In this document: in pieces, positions 45,504 to 64,000 of the stretch
How the letters are laid out: each line of letters starts with the position of its first letter
How positions within the stretch are numbered: the first letter of the stretch is position 1
Assembly: GCF_001941845.1 (NCBI RefSeq)
Contig: NZ_CP018870.1
Span: 1,116,001 to 1,180,000, forward strand
DNA length: 64,000 nt
Reading direction: 5' to 3'
Source of the DNA: Streptomyces sp. TN58
Lineage (GTDB): Bacteria; Actinomycetota; Actinomycetes; Streptomycetales; Streptomycetaceae
Position numbers and translations under genes: made by a program
The notes under the pieces: generated by a model
Told to the model about the DNA's origin: nothing
Database searches by the model: none
The model's input: only the letters and a program-made list of their open reading frames with translations

Positions 45504-48500
45504 TTACGGGTTGGAAATGTTCGCTACCGGGACGGGCAGTGGCAGTGGGGCGGTGCCGAGACTGGGGATGGTCCAGGTCTGGGCGGGTGAGCCGTTGCAG
45601 TCGAAGAGCCAGAGCTGTCGGCCGGGCGTTGTGTCATTGTTGCCCAGGTCGATGCAGCGCCCGGAGACGGGGTTGTGGATCGCGCCGTTGGCGCGGGGCA
45701 GGAACTGCTGGCTCTTGGCACTCGCGTCACACGTGCGCAGTTCGATCAGTGTGGTGTTCGCGGTGCCGGCTGCGGCGGCGTTGAGGCACTTGCCGTGGAT
45801 CTGGATCGTGCCGTCGTTGCGGATCTGGAACTGCTGGGCGTTCGTGCCGTTGCAGACAGCGATCTGGATCTTGTTGCCGTCGGTGTCGCGGTCGTAGTCG
45901 TTGTCGACGCAATTGGCTGCCGCGCCGGCCAGGTGGATGGGGCTGGATGCGTCGGGGGCGGTGACCGGTGCGGCGTAGGGGTAGACGGCGAGGTTGCTGA
46001 TGCCGCCGACGAACCCGCTGTCCGTCACATGGGCGGGCTGGCCGTCCTTCTTATAGCGACCCATGACAAGCGGACCGGTGGGGATCTGGCTGGTGCTCGC
46101 GGTGTGGTGGCCCGTGCTGGCGAGAGTGCCATTGACGTAGAGACGCATCATGCCGGTCGTGGCGTCGTAGACGGCGGAGATGCGCGTCCACTGGCCGGGG
46201 ATGAAGCGGACCGCGCTGTTGACGGCGAGGTCGGCCCAGTCGTACATCAGGCCGTCGGTGTCACCGCGGGCGATGGCGAAGCGCCAAGCCTGACCGTTGG
46301 GGTCGGCGTAGAGGAGGAAGGCACTGCTGCGAGTGCCGTCCTGGCTGGCGACGATGCCACCATTGGCCGTTGCCGCCTTCGCCCAGGTGGTGATGGTAAA
46401 GCTGCTGCGCGTGTCGACGGCCTTGGTGGTGCTGGTGATGCTGGAGGCCTTGCCCGTGAACGCCGCGTGGGTGGTCTCGTGACCTGCAATGGGTTCCTTG
46501 GCGAAGGTGACCCCTGCGGAGGTGGCAGGGTTGCTGCCGGCGGGGGCCGTGGCGGCATCGAAACCGACCTCGTCACGAGCCTTGCTACCAGTCAGGCCGG
46601 TGAGACCCCACTTGGCTGAGGGACCGTTCAGGTCGCCTAAGGTGACGGGTGAGGTGTCGATGCCGGTGACGGTGGGATTCGGGTTCCCCCCGTCAGGGCG
46701 GGTCCCTGTGCCGTGAAAGGAGACGAGCTGCTGATTGGTGTTGACAGCCCACAGGTCGGGGATGCGGTCTTCGCTGATGTCTCCGTTGGAGCCGATACGA
46801 GGGTAGGTCTTCGGATCGATCTTGCCCGTGATCAGGCCTGCGGTCGGATCGGTGAACCCGGTCAGGTCGGTGGCGCTCTTGACGGTGAAGGCGTGCAGGG
46901 TGCCGCCGTCGGTCTTGGAGCGGGCCCACAGGGTCGGGAAGGCCGTGCCCTGGGCGCGACCCGGGGCGATCAGGTCGTAGCCGTCCCACTTGGTGTCGTT
47001 CCCCGACAACAGGATCGCCTGCGGTGCGAACACCTTATTGACACCGGAGGGGGTGGCGAGCCACAGGCGTCCGTTCTCGACGAACAGCAGGGACGTCTGA
47101 GGCAGAGTTACACCGGATTCACCGGTGACTCCGCCGACTGCCGCGATCTGTGTCACCTTGGACCAGTCGGTGCCATAGCCATTGGTGGCGCAGGGAATGA
47201 CTGTTGTCTTGTCTGACTTCAGGCAGCTGGTGGGCTTGGTGATGCCGGTGGCTGCCTGGCCGTCGAACCAGCCGCCGTTGCCGTCATTGTCGTAGACGTA
47301 CAGGTGCGGGCTGCCGCTCTGGTGGGCGAAGAGGTCGTCGACGCTCTTGTAGCCGAGGCTGCCGCGGTGGCTGATCTGGATTGCGTTCCAGTTCCCGCTG
47401 TTGCCGGGCGCGGTGACCATCTTGGCGCGGGGCGCGCCGTAGGGGTCTTCGCCGCCGCCGATCTTGCGAAGATCACCTGCACCGCCGGGCAGCAGGATGT
47501 CAGGCTTGTGGTCTCCGTTGATGTCACCGAAGACGGACGAGCCGGCGTCGGGGTTGGAAGGTGCGTAGTAGCTGTAGACGAACGGCTGGGACATGTTGCC
47601 CGCGTTGTCCTGGGTCTGCAGGTAGACGTAGTTGGTGCCCCAGCGGGGCGGCGTGATGCTGATGTCGGCCTTGCCGCCCGTCAGCTTGACGATGCCCGCT
47701 GCGGTGTCGGTGCACTTCCAGCCGGTGGCGGCCGCCTTGACCGGGTCGGTAGTCCACCGCGCGCAGGCCAGACCGGAGGTCCGGCCGCCGCCAATGGGGG
47801 CGGGGTCGGTGCCGGTGAGCGTGAAGGTGCCGGGTTGTCCTGCGCGCTTGGGGTGGGCGCCGATGGTGCCGGAGGCGGGGAAGTCGGTGGAGGTGATGGT
47901 CGCGGTCGGCGGGGTGCGGTCGACGCGGAAGAAGCACATTTCGGTGTTGGCGCTGGTGAGCGTGCCGTCTGTGGTGCGGGCCTGCCAGCCGTACTGGTGT
48001 CCGTCGGTCAGCGGCCCGATGTCGACGGTGACGGCGCCGTAGCTGCTCTGCCATCCGGTCTCGGCGTACTTGGTCTCACCGTTCTTGTCGTCGTCCCAGT
48101 ACTGGAACGCCGTCCAGAGCTGCTGGCCGGTGGCCGAGTAGGTGGAGGTCGTCAGGGTGATGTTGTTGTTGGCGCCGACCCAGCCGGGGTTGTCCCACGG
48201 GTTGGTGGTGCCGGGGGTGCGGCAGTCGGCGTAGGAGGCGGTGTCGGCGAAGCCGGGCGTGGGTGCCGCGCGGGGCCACCAGACGGTGGGCTGGATGTCG
48301 TACTCGACCACGATGTGCGGGGTGTTGGTGAACCGCTGACGGTAGTACTTGTTGTACTCGTCGTCGGGCGCGAGGCCGAGGGTGATGGTGGGCCACTTGT
48401 TCGCGACCGCGGTCTTCACCAGGTCCTTGACGCCGAACTGGATGTCGCCCGACCCGGACATGCTCACGGTGCCGATCTTGCCGCAGCCGCCCATGCGCGA

Positions 48501-49889
48501 GTTCTTGTCACAGGGCTGGCGGTTCCAGCTGGTCGGGTTGCCGATGTAGCCGGTGGAGTACAGGCCCATCGGGGTGACCGTGCTGGGGCTGGAGGAGGAC
48601 ACGACATCCGCGTAGAACGTCGCGTTGATGACCTCGGCACCGTGGAGACGGGAGTCCACGCCGATCTGGAAGTAGGCGCGCGAGCGGCCCTCCCTGTCAC
48701 ACGGCGGGTTGCCCACGATGTAGCCGCAGTAGCCGGCGGCCGGCTTGTCCTGGCCGTACTGGGTGCCGTTGAACTCGTTCGTGTCCGGGAACGCCTCCTG
48801 GACTTGTGCCCAGGCCTGGTTGGCATTGTCGAGGGTCGGGTTCCAGCCCGGGTCGATGTACCACGGACCGGTGCCCTGGCCGAGGAGCGTTGCGTCGGGG
48901 ACGAGCTGGATGCCCTTGGCGTCCACGGTCGTGGCGATGCTCTGGACGCTGGCCCCGGTGCCGGGACCGTCGGTGCTCGACGGCGTCACGGAGGTCTCGG
49001 TCAGCGCGGACCGGGCGGCTTGGGTCTGCGCCGACTTCATAAGCGGGGCAGGCGCGGGGGCCGCCGAGCCGGCCGAGTCCCACATGAGCGGGGTCGGGGC
49101 CGAGAAGCGGGTCTTGCCCTGGCCGTCGGCGGCCTTCAGGTTGCCGGCACTGTCCGCGCTCACCGTCAGGCCGTCGGCCTCGACCGCGAGTTGCAGTTTC
49201 TTGACGGCGGGGTTCGCCGCGGCCTCCGGGGTGCGCACGATCAGGACCTGGCGCCAACCGCCGAGCGTGGTGGCGCTGAGCTCTAGGTCCACGCCCGGCA
49301 GGACGGAGGCGTACAAGGCGCTGTCGCCGTTGAGCGTCGGCTTCGGCAACGGGAAGGGCGCCTTGAGGGACAGCTTCTTGCCGTCCGTCGTGGTCATCGT
49401 GGCCATCGGGCCCGTGCCGCCGCCGGAGAGGCTGAGTGCGGATGGAACGGCCGCCGGGGAGACGGTGCCGTCGGCGTTGGCGCGAAGCGTGGCGTCGACG
49501 CCCTTCCACGTGCCCGAGGCGGTCTTGACGCGCTGCGGCACGGGCGAGGTGTCGGTGCTGAGCGATCCGGTCGACGTGGCGAAGGTCTGCGCATTGGCCG
49601 TCGTCAGGTAGTCGATGAGCACCGGCTTGCCGCTGCTCTTGGCCTGTGCTTTCGCGGCGTCAACAGCCGCTGTCAGGGCTGCGTTGGGGTTCGTGCCGGG
49701 GACGGGCCACGCGCTGTCGGCGGGGCCATGTCCGCGGGTGTCTTCGGCGTAGGCAGGCGGGCCTGCGAGCAGTGTGCCACCAAGGGCAAGCAACACGGCC
49801 CCGGCAACGGGGAGCGTGAGCGAGTCGGCGGCTCGCCGTCTGCGTCGGACCCCGGGGCCGGAATGGGATGAACGGATGGCTGGCCTCAT
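45504..49889 (-). CDS. Large secreted multidomain protein with FG-GAP, LamG and ricin-type lectin domains
   Basis: Exported protein of about 1461 residues. The ATG at 49889 follows GAGGACC; a GTG at 49937 is an alternative. A signal peptide (LTLPVAGAVLLALGGTLLAGPPAYA) is followed by a long region containing WYIDPGWNPTLDNANQAW, resembling the N-terminal DNRLRE-type segment found with RHS proteins. Ig-like repeats come next (VDRTPPTATITSTDFPASG). Then an FG-GAP-like repeat (FGDINGDHKPDILLPGG), a LamG/concanavalin domain (FTITTWAKAATANGG, then LYVNGTLASTGHHTAS), and a C-terminal ricin-B lectin with Q-x-W motifs. No catalytic site is seen. It is divergent from the RHS toxin gene and looks like a carbohydrate-binding surface partner. 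Confidence 0.85.
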   Translation of the reverse strand: MRPAIRSSHSGPGVRRRRRAADSLTLPVAGAVLLALGGTLLAGPPAYAEDTRGHGPADSAWPVPGTNPNAALTAAVDAAKAQAKSSGKPVLIDYLTTANAQTFATSTGSLSTDTSPVPQRVKTASGTWKGVDATLRANADGTVSPAAVPSALSLSGGGTGPMATMTTTDGKKLSLKAPFPLPKPTLNGDSALYASVLPGVDLELSATTLGGWRQVLIVRTPEAAANPAVKKLQLAVEADGLTVSADSAGNLKAADGQGKTRFSAPTPLMWDSAGSAAPAPAPLMKSAQTQAARSALTETSVTPSSTDGPGTGASVQSIATTVDAKGIQLVPDATLLGQGTGPWYIDPGWNPTLDNANQAWAQVQEAFPDTNEFNGTQYGQDKPAAGYCGYIVGNPPCDREGRSRAYFQIGVDSRLHGAEVINATFYADVVSSSSPSTVTPMGLYSTGYIGNPTSWNRQPCDKNSRMGGCGKIGTVSMSGSGDIQFGVKDLVKTAVANKWPTITLGLAPDDEYNKYYRQRFTNTPHIVVEYDIQPTVWWPRAAPTPGFADTASYADCRTPGTTNPWDNPGWVGANNNITLTTSTYSATGQQLWTAFQYWDDDKNGETKYAETGWQSSYGAVTVDIGPLTDGHQYGWQARTTDGTLTSANTEMCFFRVDRTPPTATITSTDFPASGTIGAHPKRAGQPGTFTLTGTDPAPIGGGRTSGLACARWTTDPVKAAATGWKCTDTAAGIVKLTGGKADISITPPRWGTNYVYLQTQDNAGNMSQPFVYSYYAPSNPDAGSSVFGDINGDHKPDILLPGGAGDLRKIGGGEDPYGAPRAKMVTAPGNSGNWNAIQISHRGSLGYKSVDDLFAHQSGSPHLYVYDNDGNGGWFDGQAATGITKPTSCLKSDKTTVIPCATNGYGTDWSKVTQIAAVGGVTGESGVTLPQTSLLFVENGRLWLATPSGVNKVFAPQAILLSGNDTKWDGYDLIAPGRAQGTAFPTLWARSKTDGGTLHAFTVKSATDLTGFTDPTAGLITGKIDPKTYPRIGSNGDISEDRIPDLWAVNTNQQLVSFHGTGTRPDGGNPNPTVTGIDTSPVTLGDLNGPSAKWGLTGLTGSKARDEVGFDAATAPAGSNPATSAGVTFAKEPIAGHETTHAAFTGKASSITSTTKAVDTRSSFTITTWAKAATANGGIVASQDGTRSSAFLLYADPNGQAWRFAIARGDTDGLMYDWADLAVNSAVRFIPGQWTRISAVYDATTGMMRLYVNGTLASTGHHTASTSQIPTGPLVMGRYKKDGQPAHVTDSGFVGGISNLAVYPYAAPVTAPDASSPIHLAGAAANCVDNDYDRDTDGNKIQIAVCNGTNAQQFQIRNDGTIQIHGKCLNAAAAGTANTTLIELRTCDASAKSQQFLPRANGAIHNPVSGRCIDLGNNDTTPGRQLWLFDCNGSPAQTWTIPSLGTAPLPLPVPVANISNP

Positions 49890-50097
49890 GGGCGAGGGTC
49901 CTCGCTGTCGGCAGAAATGAACAGAAGTCAGGCGCACATTTGCCTGCCGTTTGCGACGTTGCCAAAGCGTTGAAGATCAAGATGTCCGGATAGCGGCGCG
50001 ACGTGACACCTTGTCCGGCGAGTGACATCCCCCACCTGAGAAAATCCTTAAAGATCGCTTACCTTTTACACGAAACCTTCATAGGGTGCGGCTGATT

Positions 50098-50147: not shown

Positions 50148-53100
50148 TTGTTCCATCGGGGTGGCTTCGCCGTGCGCTCACAGCGCAGGCGGGCGAGAGT
50201 CGCGGTGGTCGCCGCACTCGCTGTCGTCGTATCAGGGCTAGGGCTTCCAGCAGCCCAAGCAGCCAACAAACCGCCGAAGGTGTGGGTGCCGCCGAAAACG
50301 GCCCTGCCCAACGCGAAGGCAGTCAAGGGCTCCAGCGCCAAGACCGCCGCCAAGGAGACCTCCACCGGCAAGGCGTGGAAGCCCGCCAAGGCGAAGACCC
50401 CCAGCGGTTCCAACCGGGTTGAGATCAGCAGGCCGCCGGCCGGCCGTCCCGCCGACCCGTCGAAGACCCGCCAGGCAGGCGAGCTGCCGGTGGAAAGACG
50501 GCGAACCGCTCCACGCCCCTGTCCGAACTCGCCACCTCTGCGGCCCCGCCCACCACGGGCAGCGTCAACGTCGAGGTCAAGGACGCCAAGACCACCAGCG
50601 CCGCCGGCGTGAACGGCGCACTGATCGCCCTCACCGAGCCCGTCGGCGCCGCCGCATCGGGCAAGGTCGAGCTCGCAGTCGACGCCTCCACCTGGGCCAA
50701 GAACGCCGGCGCCAACTGGGGGGCCCGCGCCCGACTGGTCCAGCTGCCCGCCTGCGCCCTGACCACACCGGGCGCACCGGGCTGCACCAGCCGCAAGCCC
50801 CTCCCCGCACACCGCGACGCGTCCGGCCGTCTCGTCGCCGAGATCGACATGCCCAAGCGGCCCGCGGCGCAGACGCCCGGGCTGACGGGGCAGAGCGACG
50901 CCAAGGCGGCTCTCGCAGCGGCACCGCAGATGCTGGCGCCGCAGAACGTCCCTGTGGGCGTGGAGCCGGGTCCGTCGAGCAACCTCGGCGACTACTCCGC
51001 GACACCGCTTCTGCCGTCGGCCTCCTGGCAGGCCGGGGCGAACGCCGGCAACTTCACCTACGGCTACACCGCCGAGATCCCGTCCGCGATCGCTGGCGCC
51101 GCACCGAGCCTGACGCTCGGCTACGACTCCGCCTCCATCGACGGGCGCACCGCGTCGACGAACGCGCAGGCCGGTCTGATCGGTGAGGGCTGGGACTGGC
51201 ATCCCGGCGCCATCTCCCGCTCGTACAAGGGCTGCAAGGACGCGGGCATCGCGAACTCGGGTGACGAGTGCTGGGCCGGCGACATCCTCTCCCTGTCGAT
51301 GGCGGGCCACGCGGGCCAGATCGTCCGCGACGACACCACCTGCGAGTACCGCCTGCAGGGTGACGACGGTACGAAGATCGAGCGTCTGACCGGCCAGCGG
51401 AACCCGGCCTGGAAGGGCGAGGCCTTCAAGGTCACCACGACCGACGGCACCCAGTACTACTTCGGCTCCAACCGCCTGCCCGGCGGCGACGGCACCGACC
51501 CGCAGGCCGACTCCGTCTCCACCGTCCCCGTGTACTTCAACAGCGGCCAGGACAAATGCCTCGGTGCTGCCACCCCGGCCAACGGCACCTGGCAGCAGCT
51601 GGGCTGGCAGTGGAACCTCGACTTCGTCGTCGACCCGCACCAGAACCTGACTTCCTACCGCTACGGCCAGGAGCACAACTACTACGCACGTGGCGGCGGC
51701 CAGAACAACGGCACCGGCACCCCCACCCTCTACCAGCGGGCTTCCTACCCGACCTGGATCGGCTACGGCCAGCGCCTGCCCGACCAGATCACCGCCAAGG
51801 GCAAGGCCAACACCGCAGCGCAGATCAAGCTGGGTATCGAGGACCGCTGCTTCGAGGGAGCCACCGCCTGCGACCCGGCCAAGCGCAAGACCTCCCCTGG
51901 AGCGTGGGGTGACACTCCGGTCGACCAGGAGTGCGCGGCCACCGGTCAGTGCCTGAACCTGTCGCCGACCTTCTTCTCCACCAAGCGTCTGGCGAAGATC
52001 GAGACCGAGGTCCTCGGCACTGGCGGCTACCGCAACATCGACACCTACAACCTCAAGCAGCGCCTGGAGCCCTCCGGCGACGGCTCCGCGCCGACGCTGT
52101 GGCTGGAGTCCATCCAGCGCAGCGCGACCAACGCCCGGCCCAAGCTGGACGTGCCGCCCGTAACCTTCGGCAAGCCGGCGAAGATCCCCAACCGGGTCGA
52201 CGGGCCGGTCAAGCGCCCCAACGGCACCGAAGCCACCACCTCCCCCTTCCACCGGCCGCGGATCCAGGAGATCACCACCGAGACCGGTGGCCGGATCAAC
52301 GTCGTCTACAAGGCCCCGGAGTGCTCCCGTGTGAAGGGCACCATGCCCGCCGCCGCGGACAACAACACGATGGCGTGCATGCCGGTCAAGTGGTACCTGC
52401 CCGACCAGTCCTTCCCCGATCCGGTCGACGACTGGTTCCACAAGGTCGTCGTCCAGTCCGTCACCCAGCAGGACATGGTCGCCGGCCAGACCACCGTCGT
52501 CACCGACTACGAATACGGCGGCGGCATCGCCTGGCACCGCAACGACTCCGAGTTCACCGATTCCAAGACCCGCACCTGGGACCAGTTCCGCGGCTACGCC
52601 ACCGTCACCACGCGCACCGGCAACGGCAACAGCGCAGAAGCACCGCGCACCAAGTCCGTCGCCACCTTCCTGCGCGGCATGGACGGCGACGTCCTCGCCA
52701 ACGGCACCAAGCGCACCGTGAACGTGCCGGATGCCCACGGCGGCACCATCAAGGACGAGGAACACCTCTCCGGCTTCGTCCGCCAGACCCAGACCTACGA
52801 CCGCGACGGCGGCACCGTCATCGCCGACGAGGTATCCACCCCCTGGACCCGAGAAAAGCCCACCGCCACCCGCGCCCAGTCCGGCGGCATGCCCCCCATC
52901 ACCGCCCGCGTGATGAACACCGGCAAGGTCACCAGCCGCGCCAAACTCGCCGACGGCACCACCTGGCGCGTCAGCGAACGCACCTCCACCTACGACGACA
53001 CCGCCTTCTCAAGGCCCCTGCAGGTCGACGACAAGAGCGACCTCTCCCGCCCCGACCAGCGCCTGTGCACCACCTTCACCTACGCCGCCGGGGCCGGTGG

Positions 53101-56100
53101 TGCGCTGACGGAGCTCGCCTCCCGAACCCTGGTTCTCAAGGGCGCCAGCGGCTGCGCGCAGACGCCCACAGCCGCGAACACGGTCGGTGACACGCGCGCC
53201 TACTTCGACGGCAAACCCCTCGGACAGACGGGCACGACCGCCGACCAGACCGGCACCGAGGTCCTGGAGAAGTACGACGCCTCCGGTCAGCCGGTCTACC
53301 GGCTGAACATCACCTCCACCTACGACGTCTACGGACGCCTGACCACCAGCACCAATCAGCTCCGCAAGGACGCCGCCCACCCGGACGGCGCTGTCAACAA
53401 GACCGAGTACAAGTCCCTGCCCAACGCTCTGCCGTACGAGGTCACCCACACCAACCCCCTCGGCTGGAAGACCACCACCACCCTCGACACCGGCCGCGCG
53501 CTGCCGATGAAGACCACCGACGAAAACGGCCACGTCGCCGAACGCGGCTACGACTCCCTCGGCCGGGTCGTCACCATCTGGCAGCCGGGGCAGGACCGGA
53601 CCGTCGATCCGCCGGTCCGCAAGTTCTCATACAGCATGAACGGCGCCAACGCGCCCACGACCGTTCTGAGCCAGACGCTCATGAACGACAACTCGTACAT
53701 CAACAGCTACACCATCTACGACGGCCTCGGCCGCGTCCGCCAGACCCAGGCCCACACCCCTTCCGGCGCCTACGGCCGGATGATCACCGACGCCCTGTTC
53801 GACTCGCACGGCCGCCAGGTCAAGACCAGCGCGCCGTACTACAACGACCAGGCTGCCCCCGGTGGCGCCCTGTTCCTGCCCAACGGCGGAGTCAACCCCG
53901 ACAGCAAGATCCCGGCGCAGACCGTCTCCGTCTTCGACGGCCTCGGCCGCCCCACCGCCTCCGTCTTCCAGTCCTACGGCATCGAGCAGTGGCGCTCGAA
54001 AACCGAATACCCCGGGGCCGACGAGGTCCGCTCGATCCCGCCCGCAGGTGGCTACGCCACGACACGCATCAGCAACGGCACCACCTCGCTCCTGCGCCAG
54101 TACAAGAGCAACACCCCCACTGGTGACTACGACGAGACCCTGTACGAGGTCAACACCCAGGGCCAGGAACTGCGGCGCAAGGACTCCGCGGGCAACGAGT
54201 GGACCTTCGCCTACGACCTCCTCGGTCGCACGGTGAAGACCACCGACCCGGACTCGGGCACGGCCGAGACGGTTTACGACGACGCCAAGAACCTCGTCAC
54301 CGTCACCGACGCCCGCGGCAAGAGCGCGACCACCGTCAGCGACCTCCTCGGCCGCACCGTTGCGACGTACGAGGGCAAGGTCGTCGACCCGACCAAGCAG
54401 GTCGGCGGCTTCACCTACGACACCCTGCCCAAGGCCCTCGGCAAGCCGGCCACCACCACCCGCTACGTGGGCGGCAAGTCCGGCGCCGAGTACAAGACCG
54501 AAGTCACCGGCTACGACAACGGCTACCGGCCTCTCGGCACCAAGGTCACCATCCCCGCCAACGAAAAGCAGCTCGCCGGCACCTACGAAACGAAGAACAC
54601 CTACGACAAGTACGGGCAGCTGCAGACGACCGACCTGCCGGCCATCACCGCTGCCGGCCTGGCCGCTGAAACGCTGACGTTCAACTACAACATCGCGGGC
54701 AGCTTCACTTCCCTCGACGGCACGATCAACTCGGTGATCACGCCGTACGTCGTGAACATGCGCTACGACCCCTACGGCCGTGCCATCCGCACCACCATCG
54801 GCGGCACCGGCAAGCAGGTCGTCTCGACGATCGACTACGACCAGGCCACCGGCCGGCCCGTCCGCTCCACCCTGGACAAGCAGACCGCAACGCGGGCCAG
54901 CGTCGACGCCGTCGACTACACCTACAACCGGGTCGGGCAGCTGACCTCGATCAGCAACACCCAGGACGGCGCGAGCCGGGACCTGCAGTGCTTCACCCAC
55001 GACTACCTCGGCCGTCTCACCCAGGCGTGGACCGACACCGGTACCACCACGACGGCGCCGCAGCCGAGCGTCCGTGGTATCGGCGGCTGCGGCAACAGCA
55101 CCGCACCCGCCTTCGACGGTGCGGGTAAGCCGAGCGTGGGTGGTCCGGCCCCGTACTGGCATCAGTACGAGTACGACAAGATCGGCAACCGCACCAAGCT
55201 GGTGAAGAAGGACGTCACCGGCAACTCGGCCAAGGACACGACGGTCACCCAGACCTTCGGCACCGGCCCCAACGCCCCGTCCTCGGACCCGAAGACCGGT
55301 GGCGGCACCGGCGGCCCGCACGCCCTGATGAAGTCCACCGAGACCAGCGCGACCGGCACCAAGGTCACCTCCTACACCTACGACGCGGGCGGCAACACCG
55401 CCTCCATCACCAGCACACCGGGCACCAAGACCCTGACCTGGAACGACCAGGGCAAGCTCGACAAGATCACCGGAACCGGTGAGAGCGCCGGCACCAGCTA
55501 CCTCTACGACACCGGCGGCAACCAGCTCATCCGCCGCGATCCGGGCAAGACCACGCTCAACCTCGGCACCGACCAGATCACCCTGGACACCGCCACCGGC
55601 AAGGTCTCCAACGTCCGCACCTACGGCGCCCCCGGCGGCCTGTCCATCACCCGCACCACCACCGCGGGAACGTCCAACCTCACCTACCAGTCCTCCGACC
55701 ACCACGGCACCAACGGCGTCCAGTTCAACGCCGCCGACCTCAACCACGTCCGTCGCCCCGCCGACCCCTTCGGCAACGAACGCGGCACCCAGCCCGCGCC
55801 CGGTACCTGGGCGGGCGACAAGGGCTTCGTCGGCGGCACCAAGGAACAAGCCACCGGCTTCACCCTCCTCGGCGCCCGCGAATACGACCCGGCCACCGGC
55901 CGCTTCATCAGCCCCGACCCGATCATCGACCCCGGCAACCCACAGCAGTGGAACGCCTACGCCTACGCCAACAACGACCCCATCAACGCATCCGACCCCG
56001 ACGGCCTGAAGGCCTTCTGCGACAACTTCTCCTCCTGCGCCGCAAACACCCACACCGGAACAATCAGTAACGCCGCCGCATCCACGGCGGCCCACGGAAG

Positions 56101-57448
56101 CGGCGGTAGCAGCGGTTCGAGCGAGACCTCGAAGGCGCTGACCCAGGCCAACGGGGAGCTGAACAAGGCCAAGAAGCGCCGCGACGCCCTCAAGCACGCC
56201 GTCATCGACCTGGTCATGGACCTCATCGGTTACAACGACGCCCGTGACTGCTTCACCAAGGGCGACGTCATGGCCTGCATCAGCACCGCCCTCAACGCCG
56301 TCCCCGCCGGGAAGATCGCCAAGGCCCTCAAGGTCGGGATTGAGGCCTACAAGATCTACAAACAGCTCAACAAGGCCTACTCCGCCGTCGACGCCGCCGA
56401 ATCCAAGGTCAAGCGGGCCATGGAAGCCTTCACCAAGGCCAAGAAGGCCGAGGACGAAGCGTCCACAGCAGCAGCCCAAGCACGCAAATCAGCCGATGAA
56501 AAGGCATCGACAGAGACAGCAAGCGACAGCGCCGGCACGCAGTCCAAGGCAGACAGAGGCGACACCGACGCCGAGACGAGCGGCGGGGGGGCGGACGCGC
56601 GCTCCGGCGACTCAGGAGCAGCACCGGGGTGCACCAAGCAGAACAGCTTCCCCACCGGCACTCGCGTTCAGATGGCCGACGGGACGAGCAAGGCCATCGA
56701 GGACGTCGAGGTAGGCGACAAGGTCCTCGCCACCGACCCTCAGACTGGTGAGACCGCATCCAAGACGGTCACGGCGACCATCATCACCCCGGACGACAAG
56801 GAGTTCACCGACCTCACCCTCACCGACGACGCCAACCCCCGGGGCCCGCCGGCCACCCTCACCTCCACCTCCCACCACCCGCACTGGAGCGAAACCCGCC
56901 GCCAGTGGCTCGACGCCGGCAAATTCGCCCCGGGTGAGCAGCTCCGCAAGCCCGAGGGCACGACCCTCACGGTCCAAAACACCCGCAACTACCCCAACTC
57001 CGTCACCACCCACAACCTCACGGTCGACGACTTCCACACGTACTATGTGCTGGCAGAGGCTACGCCGGTCCTCGTTCACAATTGCGATCTCAGCTACGGC
57101 GAAGCCTCAGAGAAGGCGAACCAGGCGCTGGCCGCTGAGCTCGACAAAATGCATTCAACGATGTCTCGCTCCAAGATTCGTGAATTTGCAATGGGGTCCG
57201 CCGCTGTCGACCGGAAAACTGGGAACGTAGCAGTCGGCATGAAGAAGACCGGAGATGGCGCCTTCTGCGCGGAGGACATTTGTCGAGCCGATCTTGTCGC
57301 CAGAGGCGCGAATCCGGAAGACATCGTCTATAGCGTGCCGCTTCGCCCATTGAAGCGCACCCCTGCCCCTGTGTGTACGCGTTGCGAAAGTCGAACTACT
57401 CGTGATCAGTTCGCTCCTGGAACTGAATGGGAGAGTGATCTAGGGTGA
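50148..57448 (+). CDS. RHS-repeat polymorphic toxin with HINT and deaminase-type tip, frameshifted near 50490
   Basis: Gene for about 2433 residues if the frame is repaired. The TTG at 50148 follows GGGGGA. A Sec signal (VAVVAALAVVVSGLGLPAAQA) leads a Lys/Ala-rich stretch. Near 50489-50493 (GGTGG) one base is missing: adding a G joins GELPV to GKTANRSTPLSELA and the frame stays open to 57448. The middle holds many YD-type RHS repeats, then the RHS core ending TGFTLLGAREYDPATGRFISPDP. After a helical spacer, a HINT domain begins at a Cys (56630, SFPTGTRVQMADG) and ends VLVHNC (57083). The last 121 residues are the toxin: FCAEDIC (57266) and PVCTRC (57374, 57383) match the zinc/Glu motifs of YwqJ-type deaminases. 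Spliced or cleaved release is probable; the toxin's substrate is unknown. The neighbour is the immunity gene. Confidence 0.87.
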
Positions 57449-58002
57449 AATCGTCCGAAGAGTGGAATTGGGAATCCCTCACGACCCTGAGTATTCCTTC
57501 GAACCAGCTTCGACAGCATCTTGGGCGACTGCTCGGGAGTGATGCAGAGGAGCGCAACCGTGCAGGCGGGCTGCTCTACTGCGAGGTCGCTAATCAAGGG
57601 CAGCTGTACAGTGCCGCTGCCCCGTGCGTCGACATCATCGCGGAGCACGTAGGGTGCGGAGGGGGCCTTAATTCAGACTCCGTAGCCTTGCTTGAATCGA
57701 TCCTCAACGCCAGGTCTCGTGGACTCCAAGCGCTAGTTGACGGAGTCTCAGTGGATGTTGCCGAGTATTGCAGAAGAAGAATCCTTGATATCCTTCCGGA
57801 GATTCTCCAGAAGGCTGATGGGGAGGACTTTGAGCTGTTCCGAGAGGTCTGCTTTCTGATTCCTCAGCTCGCCGATTCGTCGAATGAGGTTGTTAAGTTC
57901 CTCAGTAATTCGATCTCGCGATTCGAAGGTGAATTTCGACGCGTCTCCAGTGAGGCCTTGGAAGAGGCTGAGGAAGTTCTACGCGACGGGCATATGTCCT
58001 AA
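57445..58002 (+). CDS. Putative immunity protein for the RHS deaminase toxin
   Basis: Protein of 185 residues. The GTG at 57445 overlaps the toxin stop by four bases (GTGA), so it is coupled to it. The base composition is clearly less GC-rich than the neighbours, as is the toxin tip, which suggests that the two came in together. The sequence is almost all helical (LRQHLGRLLGSDAEERNRAGGLLYCEV, then LLESILNARSRGLQALVDG), resembling HEAT-like immunity proteins. No family is recognised, so the role rests on position. A terminator follows it. Confidence 0.75.
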   Translation: MKSSEEWNWESLTTLSIPSNQLRQHLGRLLGSDAEERNRAGGLLYCEVANQGQLYSAAAPCVDIIAEHVGCGGGLNSDSVALLESILNARSRGLQALVDGVSVDVAEYCRRRILDILPEILQKADGEDFELFREVCFLIPQLADSSNEVVKFLSNSISRFEGEFRRVSSEALEEAEEVLRDGHMS

Positions 58003-58016
58003 TAGTGGCAGCAAGC

Positions 58017-58053
58017 GATAAGCCCCGCCAGGCATGTCCTGGCGGGGCTTATC
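58017..58053. terminator. Bidirectional terminator between the immunity gene and integrase
   Basis: A perfect 16-bp inverted repeat (GATAAGCCCCGCCAGG at 58017-58032 with its complement at 58038-58053) over CATGT. It separates two convergent genes. Confidence 0.88.
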
Positions 58054-58071
58054 CGTGGGGTGACGGCAGTA

Positions 58072-58089
58072 GCTGACGGCAACGTCAGC
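58072..58089. other. Inverted repeat next to the integrase 3' end (possible att region)
   Basis: GCTGACG-GCAA-CGTCAGC overlaps the integrase stop codon, beside a direct repeat TGACGGCAGTAGC/TGACGGCAACG. The attachment site of such elements usually lies at this end of int. No tRNA gene is nearby, so the site is not proven. Confidence 0.35.
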
Positions 58090-59392
58090 GGATGGGGAGA
58101 GCGCAGGGCGCCGGGTTGTCACCATCATCGGGTTGGTTGGTGGTCACGGCGGGGTTGTGGAGTGTGCGGCCGAGGAGGTCAATGGCGTCACGTTGGAGGC
58201 GGAGTCGGACGTGAGCGTAGACCGTGGCGGTGACGCCGATGTGGGCGTGACCGAGGAGTTCCTTGATCACGACGAGTTCCACGCCCTGCTCGATGAGGAG
58301 GGTGGCGGTTGAGTGCCTGAGGTCGTGGAAGCGGATACAGCGGAGCCCTGCCCGATTGAGGAGGGCTCGAAAGCTGCGATTGAGGTTCGCCGGGTCGATC
58401 GGCCCTCCTGCCGGCGTGCTGAAGACGAGGCCGTTGTCCCTCCAGCCGTCCGCTGCTACCTCTCGTTCTCGTTCCTGTGCCTCGCGGTGTTCCTTCAATG
58501 AGTGGATGCACTCGCTGGGGAGGGCGATGCGGCGTTCGGACGCGCGGGTCTTGGTGGGCAGGGCGGTCAGTCCGCCGGTCTGGGTCCGCTGAAGGGTGCG
58601 GCGAATGCTGGCAGTGCCTGTCTGGAGGTCGAGGTCTTCCCACTGGAGTCCGAGGAGTTCGCCCTTGCGGAGTCCAGTGCGGAGGGCGAGTTCGTACAGC
58701 GCGAACAGTCGGTCATTGCGGACAGCAGCGAGAAACTGGCGGGCTTCATCTGCCGTGAGCGGTTCGAACCGACGGGGGCGCGGCGTCCCCGTACGGACGT
58801 TGCGGGCGACATTGCGCGTGATCTCCTCCTCGCGGACGGCGTGCTCCAGAGCGGACTTGAGGACGGAGTGGGTGTACGCCAGCGTCAGCGGGGAGAGCCG
58901 CTTGGAGCAGCACGCTCCGGCGGCGCAGCAACGGGGCTGATCACGGCCGGCATCGATGCTGCGGGCGCAGCACTGGCAGGTGGTGCGGACCTGGTTGAGC
59001 CAGGTACGGACGTCTTTGGCGGTGAGCTTGGCGAGCTTCTTCTTACCCAGGCCGGGGACGAGGTACTGGCTGACGCACGCGGTGTAGCGGGTGTGGGTAT
59101 TCTCGCGGAGCTGGTGGACGGCGACTGCCTCCAGCCAGTACGTCAGGTACGCGCTGACGCTACCCTGCGCGGAGGGTATGGGGACGCCGCGGTTGCTGGT
59201 TGCGATCTTCTCGGTGAGCTTGGCGAGTGCGTCCTTGCGGGTGGTGCCGTAGACGCGGATGCGTTTGCGGGTGTTGCCCGGGGCGAGGACGTAGCCGGCG
59301 GCTTCCCAGCGTCCGTCCTTGCGCTGGTAGACGGTCCCGTCGCCGTTGGCGCGGACGCGGCGGGAGGGAGTGGCGTCGCGGGGTGTGGTCAT
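58085..59392 (-). CDS. int: Tyrosine recombinase integrase of the integrative element
   Basis: Phage-type integrase of 435 residues that inserts and excises the element. The ATG at 59392 shares its A with the stop of the excisionase gene. The arm-binding region is NGDGTVYQRKDGRWEAAGY; a SAM-like core-binding domain follows, with a Cys-rich insertion (CQCCARS and CCAAGACCSK). Catalytic residues are Arg in RTGLRKGELLGL (about 237), His/Arg in HDLRH (about 355), His in LGHAHIG (about 380) and Tyr in VYAHVR (about 390). All are intact, so it should be active. Such integrases belong to pSAM2-type AICEs. Confidence 0.95.
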   Translation of the reverse strand: MTTPRDATPSRRVRANGDGTVYQRKDGRWEAAGYVLAPGNTRKRIRVYGTTRKDALAKLTEKIATSNRGVPIPSAQGSVSAYLTYWLEAVAVHQLRENTHTRYTACVSQYLVPGLGKKKLAKLTAKDVRTWLNQVRTTCQCCARSIDAGRDQPRCCAAGACCSKRLSPLTLAYTHSVLKSALEHAVREEEITRNVARNVRTGTPRPRRFEPLTADEARQFLAAVRNDRLFALYELALRTGLRKGELLGLQWEDLDLQTGTASIRRTLQRTQTGGLTALPTKTRASERRIALPSECIHSLKEHREAQEREREVAADGWRDNGLVFSTPAGGPIDPANLNRSFRALLNRAGLRCIRFHDLRHSTATLLIEQGVELVVIKELLGHAHIGVTATVYAHVRLRLQRDAIDLLGRTLHNPAVTTNQPDDGDNPAPCALPIR

Positions 59393-59619
59393 CAGGCGGC
59401 GGCTTCCTGGTCGAGGCGGGTGCGGATGAAGTCGGTGAGGGCGTGAGTGGGGATGCGGCGGGCGCGGCCAAGGGTGATCGAGGCAAGCTGCTGAGTCCGG
59501 AGCAGGTCGTAGACGGCTGAGCGGCCGAGCTGGAGGCGGGCCATGACCTGGGGCACGGTCAGCAGTTCTTGCGACGCGCTCGGCGCCTGACGGGGTGCGG
59601 TGGGTGAGTACGAGGTCAT
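59392..59619 (-). CDS. xis: Excisionase-like helix-turn-helix protein
   Basis: Protein of 75 residues with an MerR/Xis-type DNA-binding domain: ELLTVPQVMARLQLGRSAVYDLLRTQQLASITLGRARRIPTHALTDFI. It should bend DNA and direct excision together with Int. Its start overlaps the repSA stop by four bases (ATGA) and its stop overlaps int by one, giving one coupled unit. Confidence 0.9.
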   Translation of the reverse strand: MTSYSPTAPRQAPSASQELLTVPQVMARLQLGRSAVYDLLRTQQLASITLGRARRIPTHALTDFIRTRLDQEAAA

Positions 59620-61064
59620 CGGCAGCCCTCTTCCGATACGAATTGCCGTTCCAGTTGCCTGCGGTGCCAGACGGCAGCAGCGAGGAGTCCGGCGCCGGGG
59701 CTGTAGCCCGAGCCGTGGTAGGCCCAGTGGCCGACGACGAGGGTTGTCGTCGGGTCGAGGTCGGGCAGGCCGGTTTGGGCACGAGCCTGCTCAGTGCGCC
59801 AGGTGCGGCGGGCGTCGCGGAGCGCGCCGAGGGTGACGGAGTAGCAGCGGGACTTGGTGGAGAAGTGGCCACGGAAGCCGAGCATGTGCGCCCACTTCCA
59901 GAGCTTGAGGGCGGCGAACTCCGGCAGCTTGCCGAGCTCCCAGCAGGTGCGGATCATCTGCCGCACGTGGCGTGCGACAGCGAGTCGGGGCAGGGGGCGG
60001 GCCTGTCCGGTGCCACTACAGGCGGTGCACGGGAGCGGGGTTCCGTGCGGCAGGAGGGTGGCGCCGCGTCCCTGGCAGGGGCGGCAGAACAGGGCGCGGT
60101 CGAGGGTGCCGGAGGCGTCGGCGGACTTGGTGGCGTACTTGGCCACGTAGGCGGCGACGGCCTGGTCGGTCAGTTCGTCGTCGGTGCCGAAGGCGGCGAT
60201 CTCGCGTACGTCGAGCTGTTCGCCCCAGGCGAGTTCGCGTTCCCCGATCGCGTCCGACACGACGGTTACACGGACGCGGGCGGCAGCAGCCCGGATGGCA
60301 TCGGCGAGCAAGGTGACGGTCGCGGACGGCGGTGGGGGCTGGGTGCTGCCGTCCGGTCCGTCGAGCCGGATGATGGCGTGGAAGTGGACCAGGCCGCGCT
60401 TCTGGTACTCGGCGACCTTGGCGAAGGAGACCCGCAGGACGGCGCGGGCGGCCTTCTGGGTGAGGCCGAGCCGGGCGGCGATCTCGCGGCGCAGGTAGAT
60501 CGCGAAGCGGGCCCACAATGCGGAGGCGTGGGCGTTGAACAGGACCGCGCCCGCGTAGTCGTAGGTCTTCGGGTTCAGGGGTGTGCCGAGCAGGGCATCC
60601 GTCGGCTCGTGGAGCTTGCCGCAGTGGCAGGGGCGGGGCCCGCCATTCGTGCTGGTGGGGCGGTTGTGGACGGGGCCGAACGAAGGGGCGGTGAGCGTGG
60701 CGAAGACGCGGGGGTGGGTGCGGACCGTGTCGGGGACGGTCTTGCCACCGGTCAGGCCGGCGCGGATGAGGTGGTAGGTGTCGGCGGCGTAGATGCGGGA
60801 GCAGGCCGGGCAGCGGGAGGAGCGGCGGTTGCCGCACGTGGTGAGCAGGGTGCCCGTGGGTTCGTCGGAAGTGGTGCACGAGCGCAGTACCTCACCGTTC
60901 GTCGTGTCGACGGTGGTGGTGTGGCCGGTCAGGCGTACGGGCTCGGTGCAGCCGCCGAGGCGTTCGATCTGCTGCTGTGCGCGGTCGAAGTCGGGCTCGT
61001 TGACGAGGTGGAGCAGGTCCCGTACGGCGGGGCTTGCCACGTGGCGCAGGTCCAGGGTGACCAT
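59616..61064 (-). CDS. repSA: RepSA-type rolling-circle replication initiator
   Basis: Replication initiator of 482 residues like RepSA of pSAM2. Zinc-binding Cys clusters (RCPACSRIY, then PCHCGK and CRPCQGRG with PCTACSGTG) suggest a metal-dependent fold. The metal-binding HUH-type motif is VHFHAIIRLDG near residue 226. The nicking Tyr probably lies in AAYVAKYATKS. It allows the excised element to replicate as a plasmid. It lies upstream of xis and int. Confidence 0.93.
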   Translation of the reverse strand: MVTLDLRHVASPAVRDLLHLVNEPDFDRAQQQIERLGGCTEPVRLTGHTTTVDTTNGEVLRSCTTSDEPTGTLLTTCGNRRSSRCPACSRIYAADTYHLIRAGLTGGKTVPDTVRTHPRVFATLTAPSFGPVHNRPTSTNGGPRPCHCGKLHEPTDALLGTPLNPKTYDYAGAVLFNAHASALWARFAIYLRREIAARLGLTQKAARAVLRVSFAKVAEYQKRGLVHFHAIIRLDGPDGSTQPPPPSATVTLLADAIRAAAARVRVTVVSDAIGERELAWGEQLDVREIAAFGTDDELTDQAVAAYVAKYATKSADASGTLDRALFCRPCQGRGATLLPHGTPLPCTACSGTGQARPLPRLAVARHVRQMIRTCWELGKLPEFAALKLWKWAHMLGFRGHFSTKSRCYSVTLGALRDARRTWRTEQARAQTGLPDLDPTTTLVVGHWAYHGSGYSPGAGLLAAAVWHRRQLERQFVSEEGCR

Positions 61065-61096
61065 GTCGGGGCGATTCCCTTCTGTCGGGGTGGGTG

Positions 61097-61147
61097 GCCC
61101 CGAGCAGCCGCCGTCCTGGCAAGGGGCGTATTGGTGCTGCTCGGGGC
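61097..61147. repeat. Inverted repeat upstream of repSA
   Basis: GCCCCGAGCAGC (61097-61108) pairs with GCTGCTCGGGGC (61136-61147) across a 27-base loop in the 147-base gap between repSA and the next gene. It could be a terminator, an attenuator or a binding site for a repressor. Confidence 0.5.
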
Positions 61148-61211
61148 ATGACGAACCGGGCCCATCGGTGGGCGTGGGGTTCAGGCGGGTGATCCGGCCT
61201 ACGGCCGGGGC

Positions 61212-61994
61212 TCAGAGCTGAGCGAGCGCGGCGGTGGCCACCGGCAGGGCGACGCCCATGCGCGTTGCCAGCTGGGCGGCGGTGATCGACGCTCCGTGGT
61301 CCGCGTCGTGGTTGTCCGCGATGTGCCGGGCTGCGTCGAGCAGTGCGGCGGGCAGGGACGGACGGGAGCCGCTTACGGCCGTCTTGGAAGCCGAGGCCGG
61401 GGCCGGTGTGGGTGCCTCGGTCACCGAGGGCACGACGGCCGGGGCCGTGGCGACGGGGAGCGGCTCAAGGGCCGGGGTGACGGGAGCGCTGGTGGCCGGT
61501 GCAGGAGCGGGTGCAGGGTCGGGCTCCGGCTCACTGACGGGGGCAAAGGTGGGGATGGACGCGGTGGTGGCCTCCACGTGCGAGGTGGGGTGGGTGGCGG
61601 TGTGGAACTGGGCCAGGAAGGCCGGGCCGACGCGGCCCCAGCCGAGGAGCAGGAGCGGGGCGACGGTGTCCAGGCAGGCCCGGCCGTAGTGACCGGTGAG
61701 CAGCGGTTCGGCGGTGTTCAGGGCGAGGGTGAGTACGCCGCACAGGTGCAGCAGGCGGGTGCCGGCCTTCAACTCGTGCGCGGGGACGCCGTGCAGGGCC
61801 AGGAACCGCAGTGCGACCAGGAGCCCGACGACGGACAGGTCCACCATGGGGGCGATCAGCGGCGCGATCGGGCGGGGAACGCCGAGCCGCGACGCGAGCG
61901 CCCAGACGTTGCCGAAGGAGAAGACGAAGGCCAGGGCCGCGATCACGGCCATGACGGCGGTCACGGTGTGGCGGGTGAATCGTTCCTCCGCCAT
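61212..61994 (-). CDS. DUF2637/Spd-type membrane protein
   Basis: Protein of 260 residues. Four hydrophobic helices occupy residues 1-120 (VTAVMAVIAALAFVFSFGNVWALASRLGV, then LIAPMVDLSVVGLLVALRFLAL, LHLCGVLTLALN and VAPLLLLGWGRVG), the DUF2637 pattern. A Pro/Ala/Val linker and a C-terminal helical region follow (AAQLATRMGVALPVATAALAQL). Such proteins in pSAM2 and other AICEs belong to the spread (spd) group that moves DNA between cells. It lies between the transfer ATPase and repSA genes. Confidence 0.88.
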   Translation of the reverse strand: MAEERFTRHTVTAVMAVIAALAFVFSFGNVWALASRLGVPRPIAPLIAPMVDLSVVGLLVALRFLALHGVPAHELKAGTRLLHLCGVLTLALNTAEPLLTGHYGRACLDTVAPLLLLGWGRVGPAFLAQFHTATHPTSHVEATTASIPTFAPVSEPEPDPAPAPAPATSAPVTPALEPLPVATAPAVVPSVTEAPTPAPASASKTAVSGSRPSLPAALLDAARHIADNHDADHGASITAAQLATRMGVALPVATAALAQL

Positions 61995-62033
61995 GTGCGG
62001 GGCCTCCTCTCAGACGCGGGATTTCAGGGGCGC

Positions 62034-63461: not shown

Positions 63462-63811
63462 AGGGCCGCCTCCACCACGACCAGCTCAAGGCGGGCGGCG
63501 CGGTAGGCGACGCCGTCGGAGAGCTGCCCGTTGAAGATCCGCGCCCACGGGGTCGCGAACAGGTCCACCGGCCGCACCATCGCACCCGGCTTGAGCCCGG
63601 CCGCCAGGCCCGACTGCGGGACCGTGATCTTGAGGACCTCGGCCCGGCCGTCTTCCATGAGCATCACGGTCACGGTGTACAGCGACTCGCCGGTCTCGCG
63701 GTCGGTGGCGACCTCTCCGGTCTGCTGGTCCTTGATCTTCAGTACCGGCTCGGTGCCCGCGATGCACACCGCCGACGGCAGCAGGGCGACACGGATTCGG
63801 GTCATGGCCAT
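63458..63811 (-). CDS. SCO3933-family-like element protein
   Basis: Protein of 117 residues. TGEVATDRETGESLYTVTVMLMEDGRAEVLKITVPQSGL, followed by LFATPWARIFNGQLSDG, is the pattern of short proteins found just before the transfer ATPase in AICEs (SCO3933-type). The function is not known. The start at 63811 (MAMTRIRV) is the likely one; the frame is open further up but without a ribosome site. It overlaps the ATPase gene by four bases. Confidence 0.85.
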   Translation of the reverse strand: MAMTRIRVALLPSAVCIAGTEPVLKIKDQQTGEVATDRETGESLYTVTVMLMEDGRAEVLKITVPQSGLAAGLKPGAMVRPVDLFATPWARIFNGQLSDGVAYRAARLELVVVEAAL

Positions 63812-63857
63812 GCCATCACATCCTCGTTCGATGGAGCCGCTTGATCGACTCGCCATG

Positions 63858-63887
63858 AGCATAAGGAGATGATCGCTGAACTTGCAA
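63858..63887 (-). promoter_or_regulatory. Promoter of the element's transfer/replication operon
   Basis: On the minus strand -35 TTGCAA (63882-63887) and -10 TATGCT (63858-63863) are 18 bases apart, about 45 bases upstream of the first gene of the operon. It is the only clear consensus promoter found in the element. Confidence 0.6.
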
Positions 63888-64000
63888 GCCCGATTAGGTT
63901 GTGACTTCGATGAGGTGGGTGGGCAGTCAGGCGGGAAGCCCAGGTATCTGCCCGTAGCGGTCCACCGGGCAGGCGATACGGTGGGGTCATGACCCTGCCC

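What the first reader, a model, noticed from the sequence alone, without database searches (positions are those of the whole stretch)
50148..58002. RHS-HINT-deaminase polymorphic toxin with an unrecognised immunity gene
A Sec-exported RHS carrier ends in a HINT domain (56630-57085) and a 121-residue tip with CAE and CxxC motifs of YwqJ-type deaminases. An overlapping low-GC gene follows at once. All parts of a contact-dependent weapon are present. The tip's exact substrate (nucleotide, DNA, RNA) is unknown.
Basis: partly seen in the sequence, partly recalled or inferred. Interest (0 to 1): 0.78.

Follow-up and report, generated by a model that had tools for sequence, protein, structure and literature searches.

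The report
Mobile element swaps toxin warheads
The toxin tip and its partner gene at this Streptomyces locus arrived on a small mobile element inserted precisely inside the toxin's carrier gene, giving the carrier a new warhead and pushing the old one aside, which suggests how such bacterial weapons can change type.

Summary
The RHS-HINT carrier, a deaminase-fold tip (57083-57448) and an overlapping 185-aa partner gene (57445-58002) are really there. A 22-bp repeat (21 identical) marks both ends; the left copy is the HINT codons HTYYVLA. Behind the right copy lies a displaced, DddA-like tip with a partner gene. In 150 Streptomyces genomes, integrases at least 68% identical to this one have a HINT end within 5 kb in 38 of 44 matches (three of six misses lack sequence there), every one with the same DNA core; more distant integrases in 0 of 42, but 38 of those have tRNA genes there. 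One element, identical over the 8,677 bp between its cores, occurs in two plasmids whose carriers are about 87% identical. So an integrase clade appears to exchange toxin tips in frame. Recombination, toxicity and protection are untested.

The parts
45504..49937 (-). Divergently oriented lectin-domain protein beside the RHS gene (possible accessory gene, function unknown)
   Evidence: ORF; NCBIfam lectin models; relative in the same place in G039, 67% identical over 1491 aligned positions; ricin-type lectin genes are annotated in that place beside two related carriers
50148..50612 (+). Signal-peptide-like start of the carrier, in a different reading frame from the RHS ORF
   Evidence: relative of its first 115 residues in G039
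50609..57448 (+). RHS carrier ORF ending in HINT and tip
56630..57085 (+). HINT domain coding region
   Evidence: PF07591
57035..57056 (+). Left att core, codons HTYYVLA; second copy at window coordinate 67295-67316, outside the window
57035..64000 (.). Part of the integrative element inside the window; it ends at window coordinate 67294
57083..57448 (+). Deaminase-fold toxin tip (121 aa)
57445..58002 (+). Partner, presumed immunity gene (185 aa, modelled as all helical)
58023..58047 (+). Inverted repeat after the partner gene, terminator-like
   Evidence: sequence; not scored with a terminator program
58085..59395 (-). Tyrosine integrase (436 aa; ORF open to 59872, start taken from the annotated relative)
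   Evidence: PF00589 E 2.7e-28
59392..59619 (-). Excisionase-like HTH protein
   Evidence: PF12728 E 9e-09; TIGR01764 E 1.1e-05, below cut-off
59616..61064 (-). RepSA replication initiator
   Evidence: PF20199 E 6.6e-154
61212..61994 (-). DUF2637 protein
   Evidence: PF10935 E 1.2e-05
62034..63461 (-). FtsK-like protein, presumed TraB transfer protein
   Evidence: PF01580 E 3.7e-05, 23.7 bits against a cut-off of 24; a neighbour in the related element of S. goshikiensis is annotated as FtsK
63989..64000 (+). Start of a GntR regulator that runs out of the window (to 64861)
   Evidence: PF00392 E 3.3e-37

Best explanation
A pSAM2-type actinomycete integrative element is inserted in the RHS toxin gene at the codons of the last conserved motif of the HINT domain (HTYYVLA). 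Next to its att core the element carries a replacement 3' end for the toxin gene: the last 17 HINT codons, a deaminase-fold tip and its partner (presumed immunity) gene, followed by integrase, excisionase-like, RepSA and transfer genes. Integration fuses the new tip in frame to the carrier and pushes the old tip and old partner gene behind the far end of the element. Shown by sequence: two matching att cores, tip and partner between them, a displaced tip in the same phase behind the second core, in-frame fusion, many different tips beside one integrase clade, an identical element in two different carriers. Inferred: that this integrase performs the reaction, that the carrier delivers the tip, that the tip kills by deamination, that the 185-aa protein protects, and that excision would re-fuse the old tip.
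For: Second copy of the 22-bp core (1 mismatch) 10,260 bp away, and no other place in the 7.6-Mb genome with up to 3 mismatches. Behind it an orphan tip in phase and a partner gene. Between the copies the gene set of a pSAM2-type element. HINT end beside 38 of 44 close integrases against 0 of 42 distant ones; tRNA genes 0 of 44 against 38 of 42. All 29 HINT-labelled integrases fall in one clade of 34 rows (support 100/100) with no tRNA-labelled row. Core at DNA level in 58 of 59 distinct sites, with the codon TAT, which is 0 of 83 Tyr codons in this carrier and 102 of 1534 in 28 carriers. 76 of 77 core sites are open for 80 codons or more in the HINT phase, against 15 and 2 in the other phases. 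Two plasmids: identical over the 8,677 bp between the cores plus 15 bp before the first and 17 bp into the second, in carriers about 87% identical, with different sequence beyond. Second set from named plasmids: 11 of 12 close integrases, 0 of 2 distant ones.
Against: No excised circle or empty site was seen; a displaced tip searched for in plasmids was found only where already known. A second core beyond the integrase 5' end was found in 23 of 44 stretches; others are short, decayed or lack it. Three close integrases without a HINT end by the pattern used have sequence there (G143 with a variant end, G022:C168 and G091), as has the S. mirabilis plasmid. The core also occurs in RHS genes without any integrase trace in the stretch fetched (7 of 11 core-bearing control loci). 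In the tree the HINT label needs 4 changes, because unlabelled rows lie in the clade. The 44 matches come from 28 genomes and some are pieces or neighbouring units of one array, so they are not independent. The carrier in this strain looks broken near its start.
Confidence: 0.87

Rival explanations
1. Ordinary chromosomal RHS toxin: tip and partner belong to the RHS gene and the integrative element merely landed downstream of them.
For: The tip is in frame with the carrier; an integrase next to a gene often means only a nearby att site.
Against: The att core lies upstream of the tip, inside HINT, and the second core lies 10 kb away with another tip behind it. In two plasmids tip, partner and element move as one identical block bounded by the cores.
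Confidence: 0.04
2. Tips are exchanged by homologous recombination between conserved HINT sequences, as proposed for orphan tips of other Rhs and T6SS loci; the integrase is a passenger.
For: Such displacement is the usual proposal for Rhs and T6SS loci (PMC5361080 and PMC5727410, passages seen). In S. megasporus the same tip (75-76%) sits on another carrier whose HINT end lacks the exact motif.
Against: The core is held at the DNA level against codon usage. The shared block begins 15 bp before the core. Close integrases, and no distant ones, sit beside HINT ends. Right ends of elements share an inverted-repeat arm before the core.
Confidence: 0.08
3. The integrase targets the HINT codons, but the carried tip is only a repair end that keeps the host gene intact, like tRNA-restoring elements; swapping the toxin has no selected role.
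For: Same layout as the tRNA-associated relatives, with the integrase reading towards the att side.
Against: A repair end should stay constant. Here 56 distinct tips form 48 sequence clusters and match nuclease, Fic, ADP-ribosyltransferase and deaminase families; short genes follow the RHS gene in several annotated records. This rival changes the reason, not the mechanism.
Confidence: 0.2

Closest known systems
Actinomycete integrative and conjugative elements (AICEs, pSAM2 type)
   Same: Tyrosine integrase, excisionase-like HTH protein, RepSA, DUF2637 and FtsK-like genes, flanking direct repeats, stacking at one site. Stacking and protein-coding targets are reported for Streptomyces AICEs (PMC9513070, passages seen: 36 tRNA, 14 protein-coding, 1 intergenic sites).
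   Different: The site is inside a toxin gene and the element brings a new toxin tip and partner gene in frame. The word Rhs does not occur in the main text of that paper; its site table is a supplement that I could not read, so such sites could be among its 14.
C-terminal displacement of Rhs and T6SS effectors with orphan tip or immunity arrays
   Same: New tip fused to the carrier, old tips and partner genes stacked behind.
   Different: There recombination is ascribed to homology; PMC5361080 states that no evidence showed an integrase at work (passage seen). PMC5727410 notes integrase-like genes near Rhs loci of bee gut bacteria and leaves their role open (passage seen).
Aux3 and GIVchS12 mobile T6SS modules of Vibrio cholerae
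   Same: Effector-immunity genes moved by an integrase at att sites (PMC7721734, passages seen).
   Different: As read in those passages, whole modules are inserted; replacing the tip of a toxin gene in frame is not described there.
[quoted passage not shown]
   Same: Tyrosine recombinase beside arrays of orphan immunity genes (PMC12247911, passages seen).
   Different: As described there it is a defensive array; here tip and partner come together and are fused to a carrier.
YwqJ-like and DddA-like deaminase toxins (PF14431, PF14428)
   Same: Deaminase fold, C-A-E and C-x-x-C motifs, RHS carriage.
   Different: The window's tip matches neither profile in the scans run, only PF00383 at E 0.056.

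Membership tests
YwqJ-like deaminase (PF14431) | Match to the Pfam profile above its cut-off (25.9 bits) | tested here: not met
   No match for tip or four relatives with the limit at E 10; the same profile finds another protein of this genome with 97.4 bits
Cytidine-deaminase-like fold | Fold of the superfamily | tested here: met
Cytidine-deaminase-like fold | Zinc motif C/H-A-E and C-x-x-C | tested here: met
   C62, A63, E64, C98, C101 invariant in six rows, the window's included
Cytidine-deaminase-like fold | Deaminase activity | not testable with these tools
   needs an enzyme assay
RHS polymorphic toxin system | RHS core and pre-toxin HINT domain | tested here: met
RHS polymorphic toxin system | Same carrier with other tips in relatives | tested here: met
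   G039 carrier 81%, G046 71%, G015 49% identical, with other tips
RHS polymorphic toxin system | Adjacent cognate immunity gene | tested here: inconclusive
   Pair recurs with the same overlap in S. megasporus; partner without an intact tip in G301 and G373; protection untested
RHS polymorphic toxin system | Secretion signal in frame with the carrier | tested here: not met
   The piece at 50148 is in another frame; may be a sequencing error
pSAM2-type integrative element (AICE) | Tyrosine integrase and excisionase-like gene | tested here: met
pSAM2-type integrative element (AICE) | RepSA-type replication initiator | tested here: met
   PF20199 E 6.6e-154
pSAM2-type integrative element (AICE) | FtsK-like TraB translocase | tested here: inconclusive
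   PF01580 23.7 bits against a cut-off of 24; TraB model weak
pSAM2-type integrative element (AICE) | Flanking att direct repeats | tested here: met
pSAM2-type integrative element (AICE) | Excision to a circle, replication, conjugation | not testable with these tools
   needs PCR and mating tests

The most novel reading that the evidence does not exclude
A clade of tyrosine integrases has specialised on a short DNA core hidden in the codons of the HINT domain of RHS toxin genes, and its elements travel as warhead cassettes: integration gives a core-bearing RHS carrier a new toxin and matching immunity in frame, older warheads pile up silently behind it, and excision would re-arm the carrier with the previous one. 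That would be a dedicated, reversible and horizontally mobile toxin-switching system.
Probability: 0.7. Interest if true: 0.92.

Novelty: new variant of a known kind. Interest (0 to 1): 0.86.

Why it matters
How polymorphic toxins change their tips is open: a study of Vibrio effector arrays states that no evidence showed an integrase inserting effector-immunity pairs (PMC5361080, passage seen). Here the recombinase clade, the att core and the element ends are defined by sequence, so the question becomes directly testable with a harmless reporter. It would explain stacks of orphan tips and partner genes in Streptomyces, tie conjugative elements to bacterial warfare, and suggest an addiction logic: a cell that loses the element would lose protection from its sisters (inference). 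It also gives a search rule for new toxin-immunity pairs: look beside these integrases.

Tried and rejected
YwqJ membership of the tip: rejected by profile. A common immunity family for the deaminase tips: hhalign of the partner alignment with the displaced partner (probability 11.7, E 0.0025) and with the G044 partner (1.7, E 0.03) is inconclusive; HEAT-like repeats are only hinted at (PF13646, best E 0.0011, 1 of 5 members). Plasmid records with tip and partner: no match. Viral contigs with the partner: none confirmed. The genome-contig scan with the tip found one locus, S. megasporus. Phylum samples: tip family in 2 of 376 genomes, own included; partner in 4 of 396 at E 0.001, own included, the other three partial. 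So the tip is rare. In the genus sample 23 of 392 genomes matched the tip at E 0.01 and 36 of 392 the partner, but most are near the threshold; by eye I kept as relatives G043, G044, G033 and G324 for the tip, and G043, G301 and G373 for the partner. RHS loci were too short to show the integrase, so that control was repeated with longer stretches; one of those (L255) still has only about 1 kb beyond the site. Solved structures by sequence: chance-level only. PADLOC: nothing useful. Empty site (HINT joined to a displaced tip without the element): a tip displaced in NBC_01006 was found only in the two plasmids already known; RHS-borne relatives of the window's displaced tip in G062 and G041 are only 35% and 32% identical. 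My first HINT-end pattern was too strict (16 of 44); the looser one gave 38 of 44 with the 42 controls still at 0. The VIA-align list shows no toxin deaminase of the YwqJ or DddA kind, which proves nothing. Three viral contigs with the core carry RHS genes, one with integrase fragments, not followed up. Ten paper searches listed no title or abstract start reporting integrase-driven exchange of RHS tips; one search listed 15 of 210, and the library lacks most subscription journals. Five papers were seen as passages only, none in full.
Full report
What was checked. The window is G000:C1:1116001-1180000 of a 7,585,034-base single-contig genome. The RHS ORF runs from 50609 to 57448. Pfam finds RHS repeats and a PT-HINT domain at residues 2020-2158, NCBIfam the RHS core. 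The 121-residue tip carries C-A-E and C-T-R-C. A 185-aa gene begins inside the tip's stop codon.

Two corrections. First, the signal-peptide-like start at 50148 is not in frame with the RHS ORF: the RHS frame is closed by a stop near 50420 and has no start codon before 50609. In the closest carrier relative found, G039, both parts match within one open frame of 2475 aa. Whether the break is real or a sequencing error cannot be told here. Second, the tip does not match the YwqJ profile, although that profile finds another protein of the same genome with 97.4 bits.

The pair. In a sample of 392 Streptomyces genomes, own included, close copies of tip and partner occur together and overlapping in one other, G043 (tip 76%, partner 65%). 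The partner stands without an intact tip in G301 (80%, two copies, each about 91 kb from an end of its contig, beside a 23-residue tip remnant) and in G373 (51%; a short tip-like tail seen by eye). Distant tips, 28-31% identical, are in G044, G033 and G324.

The unexpected part. In G044 three cassettes stand in a row, each a HINT end followed by a tip and an integrase copy or remnant, and the DNA similarity of the HINT end to the window starts at exactly 57035 in all three. In the window's own genome the bases 57035-57056 recur at window coordinate 67295, 3.3 kb past the window's end. A whole-genome search allowing 3 mismatches finds these two places only, and none for the pattern read backwards. 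Behind the second copy comes another tip in the same phase (153 aa from the core on), weakly DddA-like (PF14428 E 7.5e-4, below its cut-off), and then a 249-aa gene. Between the copies lie tip, partner, integrase, an excisionase-like protein, RepSA, a DUF2637 protein, an FtsK-like protein, a GntR regulator and an HTH protein: the gene set of a pSAM2-type element, 10,260 bp long.

Test 1, neighbours of the integrase. In 150 Streptomyces genomes the integrase has 87 matches at E 1e-70. Leaving out the own copy, 44 have 68% identity or more (28 genomes; some are pieces or neighbouring units of one array and so not independent) and 42 have 52% or less (35 genomes; counts). A HINT end within 5 kb beyond the integrase 3' end, on the converging strand, is found in 38 of 44 against 0 of 42 (Fisher p 1.9e-18, which treats the matches as independent). 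Of the six misses three have at most 3 bases on that side, one (G143) has a variant end, and two (G022:C168, G091) are unexplained. tRNA genes lie in the same 5 kb in 0 of 44 against 38 of 42. A tree of 75 integrases (rows under 300 aa left out) puts all 29 HINT-labelled rows in one clade of 34 (support 100/100) without any tRNA-labelled row; five unlabelled rows lie in it too. A second HINT-end site beyond the integrase 5' end, on the same strand, was found in 23 of 44 stretches, some of them too short to hold it, and on the opposite strand in 0 of 44.

Test 2, DNA or protein? All 38 left sites read CAYACGTACTATGTR. Of 59 distinct sites, own ones included, 58 have that core. The second tyrosine codon of the core is TAT, which makes 0 of 83 Tyr codons in this carrier and 102 of 1534 in 28 pooled carrier stretches. 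HINT ends without the core exist: among 18 RHS loci with a HINT end and no intact close integrase in the stretch fetched, 11 have the core (4 with integrase remnants) and 7 do not (0 with remnants); 5 further loci showed no HINT end by the pattern. With three integrase-bearing carriers of the same list this makes 7 of 14 against 0 of 7, p 0.047: weak support, and it shows that the core also occurs without any trace of an integrase.

Test 3, phase. Looking for the core as DNA in the fetched element loci, without regard to frame, 76 of 77 distinct sites are open for at least 80 codons in the HINT phase, against 15 and 2 in the other phases. Tips in use and displaced tips thus keep the phase that an exchange needs.

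Test 4, boundaries. Plasmids NZ_CP108250.1 (Streptomyces sp. NBC_00069) and NZ_CP108701.1 (NBC_01006) carry RHS genes about 87% identical. The 8,677 bp from the start of the first core to the start of the second are identical, with only 15 identical bases before the first and 17 from the start of the second; the next 500 bases compared without gaps agree at 27%, as chance would give. Behind the second core the two have different tips. The one that follows directly in NBC_01006 is found one unit further back in NBC_00069 (94% identical over 1,012 aligned positions). This fits one recent element entering two carriers with older insertions stacked behind.

Test 5, a second set. PLSDB holds 16 plasmid records with related integrases, 15 of them listed. 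I fetched 14 (H12, with the organism name and length of H11, and the unlisted one were left out). Of 12 with 68% identity or more, 11 have the exact core at a converging HINT end within 5 kb; the S. mirabilis record does not. The two records at 45% and 37% have none, but in one of them (L286) the stretch ends some 200 bases after the integrase match.

Variety. 56 distinct tips fall into 48 clusters at E 1e-5. I scanned 51 of the 56; Pfam recognises among them EndoU, Fic, GIY-YIG, AHH and WHH nuclease, ADP-ribosyltransferase-like, RNase A-like and DddA-like families. By eye, tips with the Fic-like stretch HMFNNGNKRT are fused to HINT in G010 and G034 and orphaned in G080, and GIY-YIG-like tips are fused in G044 and orphaned in G025. 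Right ends of elements share a short inverted-repeat arm (such as GACCTGCGAAAAAGCAGGT) shortly before the core, and the last 45 bp of the window's right end recur unchanged in NBC_00069 and G083.

Reading. The best account is site-specific exchange of the toxin's 3' end by an integrative element. Shown is the anatomy and its repetition; inferred are the enzymology and the weapon function. That an integrase might help Rhs genes move was raised for bee gut bacteria (PMC5727410), and whole effector modules move by integrase in Vibrio (PMC7721734). I found no report of an integrase clade that targets HINT codons and swaps the tip (searches; open-access papers only, listings and passages seen). Because both parents, integrative elements and tip displacement, are known, I call it a new variant of a known kind. 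Motif names such as the Fic motif and the zinc motif are recalled, not taken from a call.

Noticed in passing
50148-50612 against 50609-57448: The signal-peptide-like start of the carrier is in a different reading frame from the RHS ORF; it is one frame in the relative G039. Real damage or sequencing error cannot be told apart.
   Followed up: partly
L158:4296-5578 (window coordinates 67295-68577, outside the window): Displaced DddA-like tip without HINT or carrier, followed by a 249-aa gene, right behind the element.
   Followed up: partly
window coordinates about 68861-69184 (outside the window): Weak, interrupted HINT-like stretch (tblastn E 0.015), possibly an older decayed insertion.
   Followed up: no
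45504-49937: Large divergent lectin-domain gene that also lies beside related RHS carriers; its role is unknown.
   Followed up: no
G000:C1:2966057-2966434 (L065): The same genome has a clear YwqJ-deaminase match elsewhere (97.4 bits), in a short open frame.
   Followed up: no
L028, L029 (G301:C1): Partner gene with a tip remnant in two copies about 91 kb from either end of the contig, probably in terminal inverted repeats.
   Followed up: partly
L277 (NZ_CP108578.1): S. goshikiensis NBC_01191 plasmid: three elements with integrase genes stacked behind one RHS gene, each core followed by a different tip.
   Followed up: partly
L274 (IMGVR_UViG_2929746306_000001): A contig filed as viral holds an RHS gene with the core and fragments of this integrase; such elements may be misfiled as phages.
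   Followed up: no
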